NCBI GenBank assembly: GCA_021647785.1
Contig: JAKIUC010000033.1
Location: forward strand, 1-44,791
Direction: 5' to 3'
Origin: Melioribacteraceae bacterium
Lineage (GTDB): Bacteria > Bacteroidota > Ignavibacteria > Ignavibacteriales > Melioribacteraceae
DNA: 44,791 nt
This document shows positions 1 to 42,447 of this stretch, piece after piece. Numbering within the stretch: position 1 is the first letter of the stretch; every line of letters begins with the position of its first letter. Under the pieces are notes generated by a model. It was not told where the DNA came from and ran no database searches. It saw only the letters and a program-made list of their open reading frames with translations. The position numbers and the translations under genes were made by a program.

Positions 1-2
1 AA

Positions 3-902
3 GCTATAATAAAAGAGCCCATTGTGGGAATTTACAATGGGTATCAAATTATTTCTACTGCTCCCCCATCAGGTGGTGGGACTCATTTGGTTGAGTTGTT
101 AAACATACTTGAGACTTATAATTTACGTTCGCTTAAACATAATAGCACCGAGTATATTCACATACTTGCTGAGGCAATGAAAATTATATTAGCCGATAAA
201 TCTGTAAATATGGCTGACCCGGATTTTCATTCTGTTCCAGTTAACATTTTAACAAGCAAAGAATATGCTGAAAAGGTACGAAAAAATATTAATCCGAAAA
301 AAGCAAATTTTGATTACAATGCTAAACGTATATTGGATAATGAATCTAACAGCACAACTCATCTATCTGTTGTAGATAAAGATGAGAATATAGTTGCTTT
401 AACTCAAAGTATAAATCATTGGTTCGGTTCGGGCATTACAGTTAAGGGGACAGGGATTTTACTCAATAACCATCTTGGAGATTTTTCTAAACAAGCTGGA
501 ACCATTAATTCAATTGAGCCAAACAAGAGACCAGTTAGTAGCATTGCACCAACACTAATTTTAAAAGATGGAAAGCCATTTCTTACAATTGGAACTCCCG
601 GAGGCTCACGTATTATAGGAGCTTTAGCACAAATTATAATGAATATTATTGATTTTAATATGGGTATTGATGATGCTATTGAGGCTCCGCGTATTCATAC
701 TTCAAAAAAGATTTTACACGTTGAGGGAAGAATTGAAGAGCAAGTAATAAACGAACTTGAAAAACTTGGGCATAAAGTGAAAGTTCATCCGGATTTTGAT
801 AACTATTTTGGAGGTGCTCAAGGAATTCTTATTGATGCCAAAACAAAGGAGCTAAGAGGTGGAGCAGATTCTCGCCGTGATGGCGTTGCTGTTGGATATT
901 AA
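3..902 (+). CDS. ggt: gamma-glutamyltransferase, C-terminal part (5' end outside window)
   Basis: The reading frame is open from base 3 and gives AIIKEPIVGIYNGYQIIS, a conserved internal stretch of gamma-glutamyltranspeptidases, so the gene begins before the window and the GTG at 24 is not its start. The enzyme cleaves or transfers gamma-glutamyl groups after self-processing into two subunits. The expected N-terminal nucleophile of the small subunit is the first Thr of TTHLSVVDKDEN (codon near 354), followed by a GSG loop, GILLNNHLGDFS and the PGGSRIIGA substrate-binding stretch. All C-terminal hallmarks are intact. Placed next to a racemase-like gene and the pgs genes, it may act on poly-gamma-glutamate like CapD or B. 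subtilis Ggt; that role is inference. Any signal peptide lies outside the window. Confidence 0.93.
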   Translation, partial: AIIKEPIVGIYNGYQIISTAPPSGGGTHLVELLNILETYNLRSLKHNSTEYIHILAEAMKIILADKSVNMADPDFHSVPVNILTSKEYAEKVRKNINPKKANFDYNAKRILDNESNSTTHLSVVDKDENIVALTQSINHWFGSGITVKGTGILLNNHLGDFSKQAGTINSIEPNKRPVSSIAPTLILKDGKPFLTIGTPGGSRIIGALAQIIMNIIDFNMGIDDAIEAPRIHTSKKILHVEGRIEEQVINELEKLGHKVKVHPDFDNYFGGAQGILIDAKTKELRGGADSRRDGVAVGY

Positions 903-1042
903 AAACTAAAGATGAGTTTACTTAGAAAAGTTATGTTCTGATTAACCACGTGTTTTACACGAGGGAAACACAATAGAGCAACTCTCAAACATACTTTAGT
1001 CCTGTTGAAGTTTTTAGAAGTGAATTAAAAAATGGAGTTAAA

Positions 1043-2068
1043 ATGAAAAAGACAAAATACCTTTATAGCTTATTGGCAATATTACTATTGGCAAATTATC
1101 AACTAAGTGCACCACAAAAATCGTTTGATGAATTATTAAGTGAGTTCTTCAAAAAAGAAAATGTGAAAATTGTTGTAACCGATTCGGGGCTGGGTGGTGT
1201 ATCTGTTGCTGCCGATGTTGTTAGCAGAATGAAAAATTCAGGTGTGTTCAAAAATGTTGAAATCATATTTTTTAATTCGCAACCCCATAAAAAATCAGGC
1301 TACAACTCGATGAAAACAACCGAGCAGAAAGTAGAGGTTTTTAATAATGCATTAGAGGCAATGCAAAAACATTTCCAACCGGATATGTTATTAATTGCTT
1401 GTAATACATTATCAGTTATTTATGATTATACAAAGTTTTCCAAAACAGTGAAATTTCCTGTTGTTGGAATTGTTGAAACTGGTATAGATTTAATTAATGA
1501 AAAATTAGAGAAAGACCCAAACTCTAACGTGATTATTTTTGCAACTAAAACTACAGTAAAACAGGGGCAGCATAAAAAAGGGCTTCTCGAATTAGGCATA
1601 AATAAAAACAATATTTATGTAGAAGCATGCCCAAAACTTGCTGGAAGAATTGAACGAGGTCCTGATAGCGATACTACAAAATCACTCGTTAATATATACG
1701 TAAAAGAGGCAATGCAAAAATATGAAAATACTGGTGAGCCTTTATACGTAAGCTATAACTGCACGCACTACGGTTATGTTGATACACTTTTTAAAAAAGC
1801 ATTTAAAGCACATGGTGTTGAGGTTAAAGAATTTTTAGACCCAAATCCGCTGATGGCAGATTTTATGTTCACGAAAAATCTTCTCAATCGTTTTAAGAAT
1901 ACTGAGGTATCTGTAAAAATAGTTTCACAACCTGAATTGTCTCCTGGAAAATTAGGAGCAATCTATGGATTAATAGAGCCCATCTCAGATGAAACTGCCG
2001 AAGCATTAATGGAGTATGAGTTTACTCCAGATTATTTTGAATGGGAATCCATTGCAAATAGAGAGTAA
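1043..2068 (+). CDS. exported aspartate/glutamate racemase family protein
   Basis: This is a MurI-like fold of 341 residues: DSGLGG (residues 47-52), the first catalytic cysteine in ACNT (C120), VGIVETG (141-147) and the second cysteine in NCTHYG (C240). Both catalytic cysteines of the two-base glutamate racemase mechanism are present. Unusually, the protein begins with a basic tip and hydrophobic stretch (MKKTKYLYSLLAILLLANYQ) that looks like a signal peptide or anchor, and about 25 residues precede the racemase domain. Cytoplasmic MurI lacks this and is about 260-270 residues long, so this protein also has a longer C-terminus. It stands 3 bp before the M14-like lipoprotein gene. Interconversion of L- and D-glutamate linked to poly-gamma-glutamate is the likely role, but another acidic amino acid substrate is possible. 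Confidence 0.85.
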   Translation: MKKTKYLYSLLAILLLANYQLSAPQKSFDELLSEFFKKENVKIVVTDSGLGGVSVAADVVSRMKNSGVFKNVEIIFFNSQPHKKSGYNSMKTTEQKVEVFNNALEAMQKHFQPDMLLIACNTLSVIYDYTKFSKTVKFPVVGIVETGIDLINEKLEKDPNSNVIIFATKTTVKQGQHKKGLLELGINKNNIYVEACPKLAGRIERGPDSDTTKSLVNIYVKEAMQKYENTGEPLYVSYNCTHYGYVDTLFKKAFKAHGVEVKEFLDPNPLMADFMFTKNLLNRFKNTEVSVKIVSQPELSPGKLGAIYGLIEPISDETAEALMEYEFTPDYFEWESIANRE

Positions 2069-2071
2069 ATA

Positions 2072-2920
2072 ATGGGGTTTAAGAATATGAATTTAAAAAT
2101 AATTATAATGCTATTAGTTTTAGTAATGAGTGTTGGATGTTCATCATCATATACAATAACGGATGATGCACAACGGATAATTAATAATTTCCCAAATATT
2201 AAGAATGCAAAACAAGTTCAAATAATGAAAGGAACTCAATACGCCACACCTGCATTTATTTTTGATTCCGGAATAAGTGGAAAAAACGTAATGATATTAG
2301 GAGGAACTCATGGTAATGAACCTGCAGGTTACGAAGCTGCACTTAGATTACTTGAACAACTTGAAAATAAATTACCGAAAAGTGGCAAAGTAATTTTAAT
2401 TCCACTTGCCAATAAGCAATCGATAATTAATAAAAGTCGCCGTATTCCTGTTCCTGACGGTGCAGATTATGAACGAGGTAATTTAAATCGCTGTTACCCA
2501 GGTAAAGAGAGCGGATTGCCGATGGAGCAGATGGCATACGAAATAGAACAATTAACACGAGAACACAAAGTAAATGTTTTTATAGATATACACGAAGCAA
2601 GATTTTTCCATTTAGACACACCAAAAAAAAGTAAACGTAAAAAAGGTTTAGGGCAGACGATTATCTATTATCCAAATGAAAAAGCATCCTGGATAGTGAT
2701 GAACTTGATAGATACCATTAACGAAACAATTGATGTTAGTGAGGAACAGTTTTCGGCAATAGAACGCCCAATTTTAAATAGTGCGGCTTGGTGGGCAGGA
2801 AAGTATTTAGAAATCCCGGGATTTACTTTTGAAACAACACAAAAAATGGATTTGGAAAAAAGAATAAACTTTCATCTTTTGCTTGTTAAAACAGTTTTGG
2901 AATTATCCGAAATTTGGTAA
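2072..2920 (+). CDS. M14-type (AstE/aspartoacylase-like) lipoprotein hydrolase
   Basis: A zinc carboxypeptidase/desuccinylase fold of 282 residues. The zinc ligands are visible as GGTHGNEPAG (H80, E83) and DIHEA (H174); GNLNRCYPG (136-144) matches the substrate-binding NxNR region, and FTFETT supplies the candidate catalytic Glu (E254). The N-terminus is a lipoprotein signal with lipobox SVGC (C23), so it should sit in the periplasm on a membrane. ATG at 2072 or the in-frame ATG at 2087 could be the start. It follows the racemase by 3 bp and its 3' end overlaps pgsW by 49 bp tail to tail. The setting suggests cleavage of gamma-glutamyl or N-acyl-glutamate bonds; the substrate is not shown by sequence. 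Confidence 0.82.
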   Translation: MGFKNMNLKIIIMLLVLVMSVGCSSSYTITDDAQRIINNFPNIKNAKQVQIMKGTQYATPAFIFDSGISGKNVMILGGTHGNEPAGYEAALRLLEQLENKLPKSGKVILIPLANKQSIINKSRRIPVPDGADYERGNLNRCYPGKESGLPMEQMAYEIEQLTREHKVNVFIDIHEARFFHLDTPKKSKRKKGLGQTIIYYPNEKASWIVMNLIDTINETIDVSEEQFSAIERPILNSAAWWAGKYLEIPGFTFETTQKMDLEKRINFHLLLVKTVLELSEIW

Positions 2921-4017
2921 AATCTTTTTCTATTCAACTTTGTAATCGCACCAATTATTAAAATCAAAAAAAACAACAAAATAGCAATCAACAGTTTTGA
3001 TTTTTCTTTGATAAAGTAAATATCTGCTTCACCAAGTTTTTGGGTATGATTAGGAAGCAAATCTATCCCATTCTCTAAAGCTATTTCCCTAATATTAAGC
3101 ATGTGGATAATTGGTATTTTGTTTTGATTTAATTTCTGAATTAGACCGAAGCAAGTAGTGTTGTTGCTTCGAATAGATTCCGTAATTAAACCGTGTGTAT
3201 ATTCCATGCTACAGGGTACTGTGCCAAGTGCCGATTGATTTCCACCAATGTTAATAAACAAACTAAAAGGCTTTTGTGAATTAATAAAGTCCATTTTTTT
3301 CTCTATTGCACCTGATAAATTTTTTGGGACAGTAATTTGCATGGCATTTCTTGCGGCGGCTTTTTTTGTTGCCTCCAAACCACCTTCCCAAAATGATGAA
3401 CCATTATCATTCTGCCCGCCAGGCGTGGCGTAGAGAGTTTTGTTATTAATAATTTTTTCTCTAAAAAGTAAATTTTCTATATCCCAATATGTTAGGTTAG
3501 TAATATTTGCACCAAAACTTGAAGCCCCTATTGAGCTAAGTATTATTGGTTCTAACCCAAATTCTTCACTTGCAATAATTGAAGCAATGCCTAATGCAGG
3601 AAAAGAACCTGATATATGAATAATTACTTTATCCCCTTTTTCTAACCCAAGTTCATAAAACCAGCGAATAAATAACGCTGAAAAATCCGGATTGGTGGAG
3701 GTTTGCTTTGCTCTTAAATCACCCAAGGTAGTAGTTATAGGAGAGAACTCAATGCCTATAAATCCTGATTGCAAAGGATCGTTTTGTAAATTTATTTCAA
3801 AATTGTTTGCTTCACGAAAAGCTCTTAATACATTTTCGGCTTGTTGCATTTTTGTTGCAGCACTTTGCATTTTACCACTTCTCTTATGCGGTGTTTTTAC
3901 TTCTGTAAGTTGAACTAACAAAATTATCATAACAGCAACAGTGGATATAACAAATAATTGCAAAGAAGAAAATTTAATTCCCAACTTGTTTTTTTTGTCT
4001 TTGGTTAGCCCCATCAT
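2872..4017 (-). CDS. pgsW: poly-gamma-glutamate system protein PgsW
   Basis: A 381-residue membrane-anchored protein with an N-terminal transmembrane segment (about residues 18-36), a large extracytoplasmic domain, and a C-terminal transmembrane segment (about 340-358) followed by a basic tail. Its place directly after pgsC, with a 4-bp ATGA overlap, and features such as HISGSFPALGIA and a glycine-rich FINIGGNQSALG segment fit the family found only with PgsB and PgsC and named PgsW (poly-gamma-glutamate system protein). Its biochemical role is unknown; it may replace PgsA/CapA, which is not seen in this window. Start: two ATGs in tandem, 4017 and 4014. The last 49 bp overlap the convergent M14-like gene. 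Confidence 0.78.
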   Translation of the reverse strand: MMGLTKDKKNKLGIKFSSLQLFVISTVAVMIILLVQLTEVKTPHKRSGKMQSAATKMQQAENVLRAFREANNFEINLQNDPLQSGFIGIEFSPITTTLGDLRAKQTSTNPDFSALFIRWFYELGLEKGDKVIIHISGSFPALGIASIIASEEFGLEPIILSSIGASSFGANITNLTYWDIENLLFREKIINNKTLYATPGGQNDNGSSFWEGGLEATKKAAARNAMQITVPKNLSGAIEKKMDFINSQKPFSLFINIGGNQSALGTVPCSMEYTHGLITESIRSNNTTCFGLIQKLNQNKIPIIHMLNIREIALENGIDLLPNHTQKLGEADIYFIKEKSKLLIAILLFFLILIIGAITKLNRKRFYQISDNSKTVLTSKR

Positions 4018-4442
4018 TTCAATAAATTAAGTATTAAATAAACTATACTTACCACAATTGTAATAGCCATTACTGTTTTTGCAACTCCTTGTTTAAAAAA
4101 TTCATTAGCAATAATTCCAGGAATAATATAACCAATTGCCTGTAACTCAATTCCCGAATCCACTATAAATAGATTTAGGTAATCCAAAATGGACCGAATA
4201 ATAAAACCTATTAGAATCATAATGAAAAATCTGCGTTTTCCAAAAACAATAAGTCTGCCTGCAAAAAGATAAACAATACCGTATGTAATTAAACTCACAA
4301 GAAGGGTTACTAATATTTTCACAGGGTCATTTATAAACAAAGCCAAATAGCCGGGTACAATTATACCACCTGCAATAAGTCCTGTAATTTCAAAAAATAG
4401 AAACCCAATAACTATTCCAATTCCAAATGCAGCAACTAACAT
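4014..4442 (-). CDS. pgsC: poly-gamma-glutamate synthase subunit PgsC/CapC
   Basis: A 142-residue, almost wholly hydrophobic protein with about four to five membrane helices and the family signature region GLIAGGIIVPGYLALF near the N-terminus. PgsC/CapC forms the membrane part of PGA synthase and is thought to help export the chain. It lies 1 bp after pgsB and overlaps pgsW by 4 bp, so the three genes are almost certainly one translation-coupled operon. The length matches the family (about 145-150 residues). Confidence 0.9.
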   Translation of the reverse strand: MLVAAFGIGIVIGFLFFEITGLIAGGIIVPGYLALFINDPVKILVTLLVSLITYGIVYLFAGRLIVFGKRRFFIMILIGFIIRSILDYLNLFIVDSGIELQAIGYIIPGIIANEFFKQGVAKTVMAITIVVSIVYLILNLLK

Positions 4443-4443
4443 A

Positions 4444-5598
4444 TTATTTTGCTACTCCCATTCTCGTTGTAAAATTCATTATTGCCATTTGTAACTTCTC
4501 GGTTCCTTTATTATTTCCGATAGAATAGAATGTGGAATTTTTTGTAATTATTTGTTCAATATTCATAATTGTTCTATCCTCTTTAAACATTACTATATTA
4601 TCTTTTGAAAAATTATTTTTTTTGAAAATATTTTTTGCTAAATATTTACCATTTCCCATTAGTAGTATTTTTGAAGTTTTAAAATTATCCGAAATATATT
4701 GAGCAAATTCTTTTGTTCGTAAAGGTCTATCCATTCTGCAATTTAATATAAAACCAACATCATTTTTCGGTTTCACATTAGTCGAAAATTGGATAAACCT
4801 CTTTGTTGTAACAATATCATTGACTGAAAATAAATTCCAAATTTCAATATTCAATTTTGGGATTTCAAGTTTAATGTTTTTATCTATAGTCTGCCATTCA
4901 AATAAAAATTGATCCCTTGCAATTTGTTTATCCAAATTTAACTCTTTTGTTATCCCGTTAATAATAGACCAGCTTTCACTAATAATCTCTTTGGGAATAT
5001 TTTTAAAATCAAAATTAAATTCAGTTTGGCTTACAATAGATACTTTATTATGTGTGCAGTTTACATTTTTCAAAATATTGTTTGTTTCTGAAGTTACAAG
5101 TAAGGTTGAGTTTTTATTCACACATTCAAGTAAGGTTAATAAATTTTCTTCAATTGTATCCCCCATTATTTCTTGATGGTCGGGCAGAACATTAACAATT
5201 ATAGCATAATGAGGCTTAAAAATTATTTTACTAAGAATCTTTTGTGTTTCTGATTGTAACGCCATACACTCCATTACCATAGCATCCGACTTCTCTTTGG
5301 CAATCTGCCGTAGCAACCGTATGTTTTCTTTTATGCTAATGGGGGCAAATCTTTTTAATAGTTTTTTTGTTCCATCATGGTTAAATAAAATGGGATTATT
5401 ACCAGTTATTTTAGCATAGACTTTATATCCATTTTTCTGCAAAATATTATAGATTATTTTTACAGTAGTAGATTTTCCGCGTGTTCCGTTAACTAATATT
5501 CGCAGAGGTATTTTTCGTATTGAGATAGATAGAAGATAGTATTCTACAACCAAATAAATGGATATTATAAATGTTATAGTAAGATAAAATTTGAGCAT
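4444..5598 (-). CDS. pgsB: poly-gamma-glutamate synthase ligase PgsB/CapB
   Basis: A 384-residue Mur-ligase-like amide ligase, close to the usual length of about 390. An N-terminal membrane anchor (residues 3-25) is followed by VNGTRGKSTT, the ATP-binding P-loop (about 36-45), then MECMALQ and the IIVNVLPDHQEIMG region typical of CapB. It uses ATP to join glutamate through the gamma-carboxyl. It is the first gene of pgsB-pgsC-pgsW. The start ATG at 5598 leaves 236 bp to the divergent ZIP gene, which must hold the operon promoter; no clear regulator site was seen there. Confidence 0.92.
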   Translation of the reverse strand: MLKFYLTITFIISIYLVVEYYLLSISIRKIPLRILVNGTRGKSTTVKIIYNILQKNGYKVYAKITGNNPILFNHDGTKKLLKRFAPISIKENIRLLRQIAKEKSDAMVMECMALQSETQKILSKIIFKPHYAIIVNVLPDHQEIMGDTIEENLLTLLECVNKNSTLLVTSETNNILKNVNCTHNKVSIVSQTEFNFDFKNIPKEIISESWSIINGITKELNLDKQIARDQFLFEWQTIDKNIKLEIPKLNIEIWNLFSVNDIVTTKRFIQFSTNVKPKNDVGFILNCRMDRPLRTKEFAQYISDNFKTSKILLMGNGKYLAKNIFKKNNFSKDNIVMFKEDRTIMNIEQIITKNSTFYSIGNNKGTEKLQMAIMNFTTRMGVAK

Positions 5599-5834
5599 TT
5601 TGTTTTATAAAGTGGAAATTAACATAAGGCGATAAACCAATATTATGAATTATTATTTTTTTCTAACACTTAAAAATACTAAAACAAAAATATAAATTAT
5701 TTACGTTTATTCCATTAAGAGTTTTGACACGTCTGATATTTCTAAAGAGTTATTACCACAAAAGGAAACATTGATTTTAAATTTGCATATTCTCTATATT
5801 TCGATTTAGATTTATTAATGATAGGAAATATAAA

Positions 5835-10370: not shown

Positions 10371-10760
10371 TTAGATTTTATATGGAATTTTAACAAACCC
10401 CATTTCTTTATTGAAATCCTTCGTGTTTCTGGTAACAAGAAGTAAATTATTCTTCAAGGCAATTGCTACTTGAAATGCATCTGGTAATTTAATTCTAAAT
10501 TTATTCCTTGATATAGCTGCCAAGTCAGCAATTTCTTTATCAATAATAATACATTCAAAACTGTTTAACCAAGTAGTAATTTTCAGTCTTTCTTCTTCTG
10601 AAGTTCCAACTAATATTTCTGCTCTTGTTACAACTGAGATAGCAGAATTTAAAGCCCCATTCTTTTTAAGCCAATTTGTTGCTTTAGTAAACCCATTGAG
10701 ATGATCAATCAAAATTACAGAATCTATTAAATATTTTTTAGAAGATATTTTACCACTCAT
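10371..10760 (-). CDS. vapC: PIN-domain ribonuclease toxin, VapC type
   Basis: A 129-residue PIN-domain protein. The acidic active-site residues are visible: Asp in LIDSVILIDH (residues 12-21), Glu in TRAEILVG, Asp in LPDAFQVAIA, and the RNTKDF end with a final Asp. VapC toxins cut tRNA or rRNA. The start ATG overlaps the end of the antitoxin gene by 11 bp, typical of a coupled pair. The length matches the family. The partner and downstream layout (antitoxin first) are canonical. Confidence 0.87.
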   Translation of the reverse strand: MSGKISSKKYLIDSVILIDHLNGFTKATNWLKKNGALNSAISVVTRAEILVGTSEEERLKITTWLNSFECIIIDKEIADLAAISRNKFRIKLPDAFQVAIALKNNLLLVTRNTKDFNKEMGFVKIPYKI

Positions 10761-40720: not shown

Positions 40721-41878
40721 TTGAATGTAGAACATAACATATCACGCTTAAAGCAACTATTGTCAATGTATAGACTTTCTGTACAAGAATTTCTTACATT
40801 GATAAGCAAGGGACTTAAGACGCCCATCTCTCTTGAAGAAGTTTTTTCTAAAGAAATTAAGATTTCATATTTAAAACGAATTGACAAGGTTTTTGAAAAA
40901 GGACTTCATTATTATATAGACCCCAAAGCACCTGAGACTTCAAAAGAAGCAAGTGTTTTTTTTAGAAAAAAAAATTTTGCAACAGAAGACCTTAATATTG
41001 GTGCTATTAAAATTGTAAATCATTTTGAAGAACTAAAATTGTCACTATCAGCAATAGCAAAACTTTCTAATCTAAAATTTAAAAGAAAAATACTCAAATA
41101 TTCTGTTAATGATAACCCTCAAGAAGTTGCTAACACAATTAGAGAATTACTTTATCCTAAATTTAACCCATCTAGACGAGATTTTTTAAAGGCTCTTATT
41201 TCAAAATTTGCAGAGCATAATATTTTAGTCTTTGAGTTTATTGAAACTTGGAATAAAAAAGAGAAGGCAAATATTGATGGCTTTTTCCTAAAACCCAATA
41301 TGATTGTTTTAAAACGTCATCAAGCATTTAGACGAGAAATATTCACCTTGGCTCACGAACTAGGTCATTATCTTCTTGAAGAAGAAGAAATAGAACAATT
41401 AGATTATCAAACTTTAGCACAGAAAAACTTATCGAAGTTAGAAAGGTGGTGTAATGATTTTGCACACTACTTCCTTATTGGAAAGTACTCTAAAACTATT
41501 GACATCTTAGATAAAGCATCTGCAAATAATGATTATCATTTTGACTTAATTAAAACCATTTCCGATAATACACATTTAAGTCAGATTGCTTTGTTTACAA
41601 GACTTCTTTTCCAAAATCAAATTTCTAAATCATCGTATAACAATGTTAAAAATGAACTTGATGAAATATTTAGAAAAAGAGAGGAAAATAAAGAACGAGA
41701 AAAACAAAGGTTGAAAGACCACGGAATTAAACAGAGAGGTTCGGTTGCAAAACCCATTCCTTCACCTTTATTCATATCAACTATTCAGACTGCATTTTAT
41801 GAAGGAGTGTTAAACGAGTATGAAGTATGTAAAAGATTAAATATTAAACCTGAAAAACTGGAAAAATATATCCAATGA
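40721..41878 (+). CDS. ImmA/IrrE metallopeptidase protein, toxin partner
   Basis: A 385-residue protein with an N-terminal helical part that may be a divergent helix-turn-helix (SRLKQLLSMYRLSVQEFL) and a central COG2856 zinc-peptidase domain with HELGH (212-216). The C-terminal 90 residues are highly charged (FRKREENKEREKQRLKDHGI) and end in a small helical domain. The TTG at 40721 is the only plausible start: an in-frame stop lies 36 bp upstream and the next ATG is at codon 16. It overlaps the DUF4411 gene by 4 bp (ATGA). Such XRE/COG2856-DUF4411 pairs are known as predicted type II toxin-antitoxin modules. Confidence 0.88.
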   Translation: MNVEHNISRLKQLLSMYRLSVQEFLTLISKGLKTPISLEEVFSKEIKISYLKRIDKVFEKGLHYYIDPKAPETSKEASVFFRKKNFATEDLNIGAIKIVNHFEELKLSLSAIAKLSNLKFKRKILKYSVNDNPQEVANTIRELLYPKFNPSRRDFLKALISKFAEHNILVFEFIETWNKKEKANIDGFFLKPNMIVLKRHQAFRREIFTLAHELGHYLLEEEEIEQLDYQTLAQKNLSKLERWCNDFAHYFLIGKYSKTIDILDKASANNDYHFDLIKTISDNTHLSQIALFTRLLFQNQISKSSYNNVKNELDEIFRKREENKEREKQRLKDHGIKQRGSVAKPIPSPLFISTIQTAFYEGVLNEYEVCKRLNIKPEKLEKYIQ

Positions 41879-42447
41879 AAGTAGTAATAGATACAAGTTC
41901 GCTATTGTCCTTGGTGCGTTACTACTTACCATTTGACACAAATGACAGACTTTTTAAGTTCATTCAAAATCAAATTGAGAATGGGGGACTAATTATAATT
42001 GATGAAGTACTAAATGAATGTAAGTTTACTTCAAAAGGGTTGGTGCTAGATAAATTGACCTATCTAACCGATAAGGAATTTAGAAAAGTACATAAAATTC
42101 CTACAAAAACTAAAGACCTTTTACCCCCTTCAACAAGAAAGTTCTATAACTTGGTTGATAATAATTTTCGTACACCTTTATCAAGGAGATTAAATGATGC
42201 TGAATTTGAACAAAGAAAGAAAGAATTTTTATCATCAGCAGATGCTAGAATGATTATATATGCTTTGAATGAAAGGCATAGCAATTCGGATTTAGAAATT
42301 ATATTAGTGACGGAAGAAACAGAGACTGCAAATGACAATAAAGCATTCAAGAAAATTCCATCAATATGTAACATTCTCAAAATTGAAGTGATTACACTAC
42401 CCGATTTATTGGAGAAGTATAACGGAATAAATATTGAATTTAATTAA
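41875..42447 (+). CDS. DUF4411 PIN-like toxin
   Basis: A 190-residue PIN-fold protein of the DUF4411 type. The first acidic residue is in MKVVIDTSSLLSLVRYY (D6), the second in IIDEVLNEC, then SSADARMIIYAL, and a last acidic cluster in LVTEETETANDNKAFKKIP, together the expected nuclease site. It starts inside the end of the metallopeptidase gene. The second-place order (partner first) and coupling fit a toxin-antitoxin module. RNase activity is inferred from the family. Confidence 0.87.
   Translation: MKVVIDTSSLLSLVRYYLPFDTNDRLFKFIQNQIENGGLIIIDEVLNECKFTSKGLVLDKLTYLTDKEFRKVHKIPTKTKDLLPPSTRKFYNLVDNNFRTPLSRRLNDAEFEQRKKEFLSSADARMIIYALNERHSNSDLEIILVTEETETANDNKAFKKIPSICNILKIEVITLPDLLEKYNGINIEFN

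What the first reader, a model, noticed from the sequence alone, without database searches (positions are those of the whole stretch)
3..5598. Six-gene poly-gamma-glutamate locus: synthase facing three extracytoplasmic processing enzymes
pgsB-pgsC-pgsW run on one strand, and gamma-glutamyltransferase, racemase-like protein and an M14-type lipoprotein run toward them on the other. The synthesis side is recognised by family; PgsA/CapA is missing and PgsW takes its place. The three facing enzymes have chemistry suited to cutting, releasing or epimerising gamma-linked glutamate outside the cytoplasm. A complete make-and-process module in an FCB-group bacterium is rarely described.
Basis: partly seen in the sequence, partly recalled or inferred. 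Interest (0 to 1): 0.7.

Follow-up and report, generated by a model that had tools for sequence, protein, structure and literature searches.

The report
Poly-gamma-glutamate make-and-recycle gene cluster
This stretch of an uncultured bacterium's genome seems to be one end of a larger gene cluster that builds a glutamate polymer and also cuts it up and takes it back, a pairing that recurs in several distant bacterial phyla and that we could not find described.

Summary
The six genes are real and correctly placed, but the window starts at a contig edge: its GGT is only a 3' half, and the matching 5' half ends contig C85, where the locus appears to continue (DctM-like permease, AstE-type hydrolase, DUF6305, another GGT). 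"GGT + racemase + lipoprotein" is not the natural unit. The recurring unit is permease–AstE–DUF6305–pgsBCW ("form B"), often with GGT or a C69 peptidase: 30 of 67 named pgsW loci have at least two of the three partners. GGT abuts pgsB in 11 of 11 other visible loci of the window's PgsW clade; the window's own pgs genes are inverted. Form A (pgsBCW without these partners) is another clade. The racemase-like protein belongs to a MurI-like family, 17 of 30 with signal-like N-termini; it is in 12 of 15 class genomes with DUF6305 and 1 of 10 with pgsW but no detected DUF6305, yet 14 of its 25 genomes lack pgsW. The lipoprotein has no close relative in 294 class genomes. Most likely: poly-γ-glutamate synthesis coupled to extracytoplasmic trimming, racemisation of freed glutamate and re-import. 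Every activity is inferred. PgsA is absent from the locus, not the genome.

The parts
3..902 (+). gamma-glutamyltransferase, 3' half (small subunit with the TTH motif); a complementary 5' half lies at the end of contig C85
   Evidence: PF01019 positions 209-512, 296 bits; complementary half at C85:42544-43167; T118/T119 near-invariant among 23 GGTs aligned, while G128E, T136S and a gap at a third such position depart; that TTH is the catalytic Thr motif is recalled
1043..2068 (+). MurI-like (glutamate-racemase-like) protein with signal-type N-terminus
   Evidence: TIGR00067 84.6 bits, below cut-off 146.65; D47, C120, C240, H242 in 30 of 30 family members; gap to canonical MurI, 153.8 against 47.8 bits
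2072..2920 (+). AstE/AspA-type zinc hydrolase, predicted lipoprotein (VMSVGC near the N-terminus; lipobox reading from recall), divergent paralogue
   Evidence: PF24827 70.5 bits; H80, E83, R140, H174, E254 in 42 of 42 aligned relatives; no close relative in 294 class genomes
2872..4017 (-). PgsW (poly-gamma-glutamate system protein), found where PgsA would be expected
   Evidence: TIGR04332 306.6 bits over cut-off 100; groups with form-B PgsW, 13-row set, SH-aLRT 97, on a long branch
4014..4442 (-). PgsC
   Evidence: TIGR04011 122.6 bits over cut-off 96.45; PF14102 120.3 bits
4444..5598 (-). PgsB, Mur-ligase-like amide ligase with P-loop GTRGKS
   Evidence: TIGR04012 195.0 bits, below cut-off 222.7; 27 of the 29 near-invariant positions of 62 aligned PgsB kept, deviations N209S and S264T

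Best explanation
The window holds one end of a form-B poly-gamma-glutamate locus. PgsB and PgsC (with PgsW in PgsA's place) make and extrude a gamma-linked glutamate polymer. Exported enzymes trim it: GGT from the amino end, AstE-type zinc hydrolases at gamma-glutamyl or terminal amides, and a C45/AAT-like Ntn-hydrolase on C85. A DctM-like permease with periplasmic DUF6305 takes the released glutamate back, and the exported MurI-like protein interconverts D- and L-glutamate so that one carrier and one metabolic route can use both. Shown: gene content, conserved active-site residues, recurrent co-localisation in several phyla. Inferred: every enzyme activity, the polymer, the substrate of the permease, the direction of flow, and the join of the two contigs.
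For: PgsBCW family matches and kept residues. Same gene order permease-AstE-DUF6305-GGT-pgsBCW in Ignavibacteria. GGT directly upstream of pgsB in 11 of 11 other visible loci of the window's PgsW clade. 30 of 67 named pgsW loci carry at least two of AstE, permease and DUF6305 in the fetched DNA, 28 of 67 all three. DUF6305 is in 31 of 34 pgsW genomes whose titles are not Bacteroidetes-type and in 4 of 16 that are (50 of the 67 were given). Reciprocally, of 15 class genomes with DUF6305, 13 have pgsW and one more has pgsB at a contig end. Of 3 further DUF6305 genomes from the class of Rectinema, 2 have pgsBCW beside it. The racemase family is in 12 of 15 DUF6305 genomes, 1 of 10 pgsW genomes in which DUF6305 was not detected, and 12 of the remaining 269. 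GGT removes single residues from the amino end of gamma-PGA in B. subtilis (PMC4497714 passage).
Against: No activity or polymer is shown. The window's pgsBCW is inverted relative to relatives and its PgsW sits on a long branch (1.63). 37 of 67 named pgsW loci show none of the three partners in the fetched DNA: 13 are form A, 24 unassigned, many of them cut short. Of the 30 form-B loci, 11 have GGT and 6 a C69 peptidase; in 13 neither was detected. 14 of 25 racemase genomes have no pgsW match, and on a tree its signal sequence does not track form B beyond relatedness. The permease is only weakly DctM-like (18.8 bits, below cut-off, on C85; 25.3 in one relative; no Pfam match in another). The window lipoprotein has no close relative in the class sample. 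G156 has permease-racemase-AstE-DUF6305-GGT without pgsW, and a second DUF6305 locus of the Rectinema genome shows no pgs genes in 19 kb (L211).
Confidence: 0.5

Rival explanations
1. Capsule anchoring and maturation rather than recycling: the GGT works like CapD, tying poly-gamma-glutamate to the envelope, and the AstE-type enzymes set chain length; the permease and DUF6305 serve another purpose.
For: GGT-family CapD sits in the B. anthracis cap operon and links gamma-PGA to the wall (PMC4497714 passage); GGT abuts pgsB in 11 of 11 other visible loci of the clade.
Against: Does not explain why permease, DUF6305 and AstE together are commoner beside pgsW across phyla (28 of 67 loci with all three) than GGT (13 of 67).
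Confidence: 0.2
2. Form-B PgsBCW does not make a long polymer but short gamma-glutamyl chains or conjugates that are exported and then processed and re-imported.
For: PgsB of the window is below the equivalog cut-off (195.0 against 222.7); form A and form B part cleanly in the PgsW tree.
Against: PgsC and PgsW clear their cut-offs and 27 of 29 near-invariant PgsB residues are kept; nothing identifies another acceptor.
Confidence: 0.15
3. The facing genes are a scavenging kit for gamma-glutamyl peptides (for example from peptidoglycan) that is merely near pgsBCW.
For: G156 has the kit, racemase included, without pgsW; 14 of 25 racemase genomes have no pgsW match; L211 has GGT, DUF6305, permease and AstE with no pgs genes in the fetched 19 kb; the lipoprotein shows a sub-threshold match to the peptidoglycan carboxypeptidase family M99.
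Against: 14 of 15 class genomes with DUF6305 carry pgsW or pgsB, and co-localisation recurs in Thermotogota, Spirochaetota, Bacillota, Acidobacteriota and Aminicenantes loci.
Confidence: 0.1
4. The exported racemase-like protein is not a racemase but a glutamate-binding sensor part for a two-component pair seen beside it at several loci.
For: Histidine kinase and sigma-54 regulator beside it at L071 (Pfam) and look-alikes by eye at L074, L080, L089 and L140.
Against: Both catalytic cysteines, the aspartate and the histidine are in 30 of 30 members; no such pair is seen beside it in the window or in the 17 kb fetched from the end of C85.
Confidence: 0.1

Closest known systems
PgsBCA / CapBCA(DE) poly-gamma-glutamate operons of Bacillus and Fusobacterium
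   Same: PgsB and PgsC families; a GGT-family enzyme in the locus as with CapD (PMC4497714 passage)
   Different: No PgsA in the locus; PgsW instead; permease, DUF6305 and AstE-type hydrolases as frequent partners; exported MurI-like protein
TIGR04332
   Same: PgsW matches over cut-off
   Different: The family does not separate form A from form B; no partner genes are named in the entry I saw
MurI glutamate racemase
   Same: Sequence homology to solved racemases, best E 3.4e-15; catalytic residues kept
   Different: Signal-type N-terminus, below the MurI cut-off, separate family alongside the genome's own MurI (C19)
AstE/AspA-type zinc hydrolases (DoeB, aspartoacylase; more distantly M99 Csd4)
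   Same: Zinc-site and base residues (roles recalled), PF24827
   Different: Exported and lipid- or membrane-anchored by N-terminal reading; below the cut-offs of all four NCBIfam models it touches

Membership tests
PgsBCA poly-gamma-glutamate synthase | PgsB equivalog TIGR04012 over cut-off | tested here: not met
   195.0 bits against 222.7, though nearly full length (profile 6-372 of 380)
PgsBCA poly-gamma-glutamate synthase | PgsB P-loop and near-invariant residues | tested here: met
   27 of 29 near-invariant positions kept in the window PgsB
PgsBCA poly-gamma-glutamate synthase | PgsC equivalog TIGR04011 over cut-off | tested here: met
   122.6 against 96.45 bits
PgsBCA poly-gamma-glutamate synthase | PgsA/CapA in the operon | tested here: not met
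   the only CapA-domain match in the genome is on C99, away from the locus; its neighbours look unrelated by eye
PgsBCA poly-gamma-glutamate synthase | makes gamma-linked polyglutamate | not testable with these tools
   needs chemistry
TIGR04332 (PgsW) | curated score cut-off | tested here: met
   306.6 against 100 bits
MurI glutamate racemase | TIGR00067 equivalog cut-off | tested here: not met
   84.6 against 146.65 bits
MurI glutamate racemase | two catalytic cysteines with Asp and His (roles recalled) | tested here: met
   30 of 30 for D47, C120, C240, H242; T241 is Ser in 4 of 30
MurI glutamate racemase | cytoplasmic location | tested here: inconclusive
   17 of 30 members, the window's among them, have a hydrophobic N-terminal stretch by a simple hydropathy reading assigned by eye; no signal-peptide program was available
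gamma-glutamyltransferase (PF01019) | full two-subunit protein | tested here: inconclusive
   complementary halves on two contigs; TIGR00066 305.1 against 357.85 on the half
AstE/AspA (PF24827) | family cut-off and zinc/catalytic residues | tested here: met
   70.5 against 25 bits; five residues in 42 of 42
Peptidase M99 (Csd4) | family cut-off | tested here: not met
   24.1 against 27 bits
CapD-type anchoring enzyme | covalent attachment of polymer to envelope | not testable with these tools
   needs biochemistry

The most novel reading that the evidence does not exclude
Form-B pgsBCW is a dedicated extracytoplasmic glutamate bank: cells polymerise glutamate outward with PgsBCW and withdraw it with AstE/GGT/C69 hydrolases and a DUF6305-assisted DctM-like permease. 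In Ignavibacteria an exported MurI-like racemase also erases the D/L distinction outside the cytoplasm. This would be a cross-phylum system distinct from capsule-type pgs loci (form A).
Probability: 0.3. Interest if true: 0.75.

Novelty: new variant of a known kind. Interest (0 to 1): 0.52.

Why it matters
Poly-γ-glutamate is mostly studied in Bacillus; one review's table names Fusobacterium nucleatum as its only Gram-negative producer (PMC3815933 passage). Finding two separable pgsBCW systems in Gram-negative and anaerobic phyla, one with recurrent uptake and hydrolysis partners, gives candidate roles to DUF6305, to a poorly assigned permease family and to a MurI-like exported family. It also makes the question 'capsule or recyclable store?' testable by gene removal.

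Tried and rejected
Rejected: the six genes as the natural unit (contig edge). Rejected: PgsA absent from the organism (one CapA-domain protein), though its neighbours look unrelated to pgs by eye. Rejected: the window's lipoprotein as the conserved AstE partner; that is the ~373-residue protein next to the permease and DUF6305. Tested without support: that the racemase's signal sequence tracks form B independently of relatedness (too few independent pairs). No base-composition sign of recent transfer within the window (GC 0.320 for 1-5600 against 0.322 for the rest; 0.349 for the C85 stretch). Profiles of PgsW and DUF6305 against PDB sequences gave nothing convincing (best E 0.83; best E 0.0086, a partial match to an alanine racemase that I do not credit). 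A viral-contig scan with PgsW matched patterns in 4 stretches, none a relative. Paper searches gave nothing on this system; I saw listings only (20 of 24).
Full report
OBSERVATION. The window is the whole of contig C81 (44,791 bp) of a 99-contig, 4.25 Mb genome. The six reported ORFs are present at the stated coordinates and strands. Families: GGT 3-902 (PF01019, but only positions 209-512), racemase-like 1043-2068, AstE/AspA-type lipoprotein 2072-2920, PgsW 2872-4017, PgsC 4014-4442, PgsB 4444-5598. PgsB is nearly full length but scores 195.0 against an equivalog cut-off of 222.7; PgsC and PgsW clear theirs. PgsW and the lipoprotein gene converge and overlap by 49 bases.

THE LOCUS IS LARGER. 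A GGT search of the genome found a complementary half, positions 2-207, ending exactly at the last base of contig C85. The contig ends share five bases and would read through in frame (read by eye; the script saw no exact overlap of six or more). On C85, in the same direction, come a TonB-type receptor, a 955-residue protein not searched, a PorV-family protein, a DctM-like permease, a ~374-residue AstE-type protein, DUF6305, three proteins with type IX sorting tails (one C45/AAT-like; another resembles it by eye only), a full GGT and the half GGT. The contig join is an inference.

FORM B. In Ignavibacteria the order permease–AstE–DUF6305–GGT–pgsB–pgsC–pgsW recurs (pgsC was not always called as a separate ORF by my picker). 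The class name comes from records whose contig lengths equal those of G243, G093 and G216 (CAISDA010000064, CAIOTF010000051, JAAYVN010000137). A scan of named genomes with a PgsW alignment gave 67 loci. With iterated HMMs, 30 of 67 carry at least two of AstE, permease and DUF6305 in the fetched DNA, 28 of 67 all three, 13 of 67 a GGT, and 1 of 67 the racemase. The other 37 show none of the three: 13 are form A by gene-length pattern and 24 are unassigned, many on short contigs. Form-B loci come from Thermotogota, Spirochaetota, Bacillota, Acidobacteriota/Aminicenantes, a Desulfobacteraceae and Bacteroidota. Of the 30, 11 have GGT and 6 a C69 dipeptidase (5 by motif; L156 by Pfam); in 13 neither was detected, so GGT is not universal. 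DUF6305 is in the genome of 35 of 50 pgsW loci examined (50 of the 67 were given): 31 of 34 not titled as Bacteroidetes-type and 4 of 16 that are or were grouped with them. The reverse search is consistent: of 15 class genomes with DUF6305 over cut-off, 13 have pgsW, one more has pgsB running off a contig end (L197), and one (G156) has none. In 168 genomes of the class of the Rectinema genome, 4 have DUF6305 over cut-off. Besides that starting genome, 2 of 3 have pgsBCW beside it, and the third lies on a 10 kb contig without it; the starting genome's own second DUF6305 locus (L211) shows GGT, permease and AstE but no pgs genes in 19 kb.

FORM A. Thirteen of the 67 named loci, and 7 more in the class genomes, have pgsBCW followed by ~300- and ~380-residue proteins and none of the form-B partners; the one pair tested has no Pfam match. 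In a quick-method tree of 82 PgsW proteins (38 labelled B, 20 A, 24 unassigned; the window's label B was set by hand) forms A and B need a single change. The form-A clade also holds 5 unassigned rows. The window falls in a 13-row set of 12 B and 1 unassigned (SH-aLRT 97), on a long branch. In that set GGT directly precedes pgsB in 11 of 11 visible loci, the window itself (pgs genes inverted) and the 3 kb contig of G507 set aside. One Bacteroidales genome bin carries both a form-A and a complete form-B locus (L114 and L213), which suggests two systems; contamination of the bin was not checked.

THE RACEMASE. The window protein belongs to a family clearly apart from canonical MurI: 29 places in 25 of 294 class genomes score at least 153.8 bits, and the next score is 47.8. 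In a phylum sample of 296 genomes, every listed place over 150 bits is in the same class. The genome's own MurI is on C19. The catalytic Asp, both Cys and the His are in 30 of 30 members; 17 of 30 have a hydrophobic N-terminal stretch (simple hydropathy, assigned by eye). The family occurs in 12 of 15 DUF6305 genomes, 11 of 23 pgsW genomes, 1 of 10 pgsW genomes in which DUF6305 was not detected (G507, whose PgsW lies in the form-B clade on a 3 kb contig), and 12 of the remaining 269. Fisher tests are strong (3e-12 for racemase with DUF6305; 0.002 for racemase in form-B against other pgsW genomes) but ignore relatedness. A tree-aware test of signal sequence against form B had too few independent pairs. 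Of the 12 genomes with both, the racemase lies within about 10 kb of module genes on one contig in 6 (G000, G156, G469, G478, G406, G243), about 25 kb away in one (G093), and on other contigs in 5. 14 of 25 genomes with it have no pgsW match, one of them (G411) with pgsB at a contig end. At L071 it sits beside a histidine kinase and an NtrC-type regulator, and similar neighbours are seen by eye at L074, L080, L089 and L140. So it is an accessory of form B in this class, not a core part.

THE LIPOPROTEIN. It keeps H80, E83, R140, H174 and E254, invariant in 42 of 42 AstE-type relatives, but differs elsewhere, and its best match in 294 class genomes is only 55.4 bits. It is a divergent extra copy; the conserved partner is on C85.

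HOW IT LIKELY WORKS. Shown: gene content, residues, co-localisation. Inferred: PgsBC polymerise glutamate by γ-amide ligation with PgsW in place of PgsA. GGT removes residues from the amino end, as B. subtilis GGT does (PMC4497714, passage). AstE-type and other hydrolases cut further, and the permease with DUF6305 re-imports the product. A racemase outside the cytoplasm cannot supply PgsB, whose D-residues should come from free D-glutamate inside (PMC3815933, passage), so it most likely acts on released monomer.

LITERATURE. Searches for pgsW with poly-gamma-glutamate, poly-gamma-glutamate with Ignavibacteri*, DUF6305/TIGR04332/PF19823, and secreted or periplasmic glutamate racemase in the held library returned nothing relevant in the listings; two searches listed mainly Bacillus papers and γ-PGA reviews. 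The library lacks most subscription journals.

VERDICT. A real and recurrent association, wider than reported and with different core partners; function inferred. New variant of a known kind.

Noticed in passing
L016:6668-8749 and equivalents in L014, L015, L017, L111, L114, L129, L130, L135, L137, L171, L175: Form-A pgsBCW loci are followed by ~300- and ~380-residue proteins (often a ~335-residue one next), the first two without a Pfam match at L016; a possible outer-membrane export kit for poly-gamma-glutamate in Bacteroidota.
   Followed up: partly
L114 and L213 (genome G552): One Bacteroidales genome bin holds both a form-A and a complete form-B pgsBCW locus.
   Followed up: partly
L071:3926-12503, L080:5421-13872, L089:5131-13598: Racemase-family genes sit with a two-component pair (Pfam-checked at L071 only), a ~611-residue lipoprotein-like protein and a ~425-residue protein; at L089 (G406) the form-B genes follow about 10 kb downstream on the same strand (L191).
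   Followed up: partly
G000:C95:24982-25890 (L062:8956-9867): A second racemase-family copy in the same genome without a signal-type N-terminus.
   Followed up: no
G000:C99:15926-16669 (L190:7468-8775): An unlinked CapA-domain (PF09587) protein among genes that look unrelated by eye.
   Followed up: partly
window 10371-10760 and 41875-42447: Two ORFs that look PIN-domain-like by eye; not searched.
   Followed up: no
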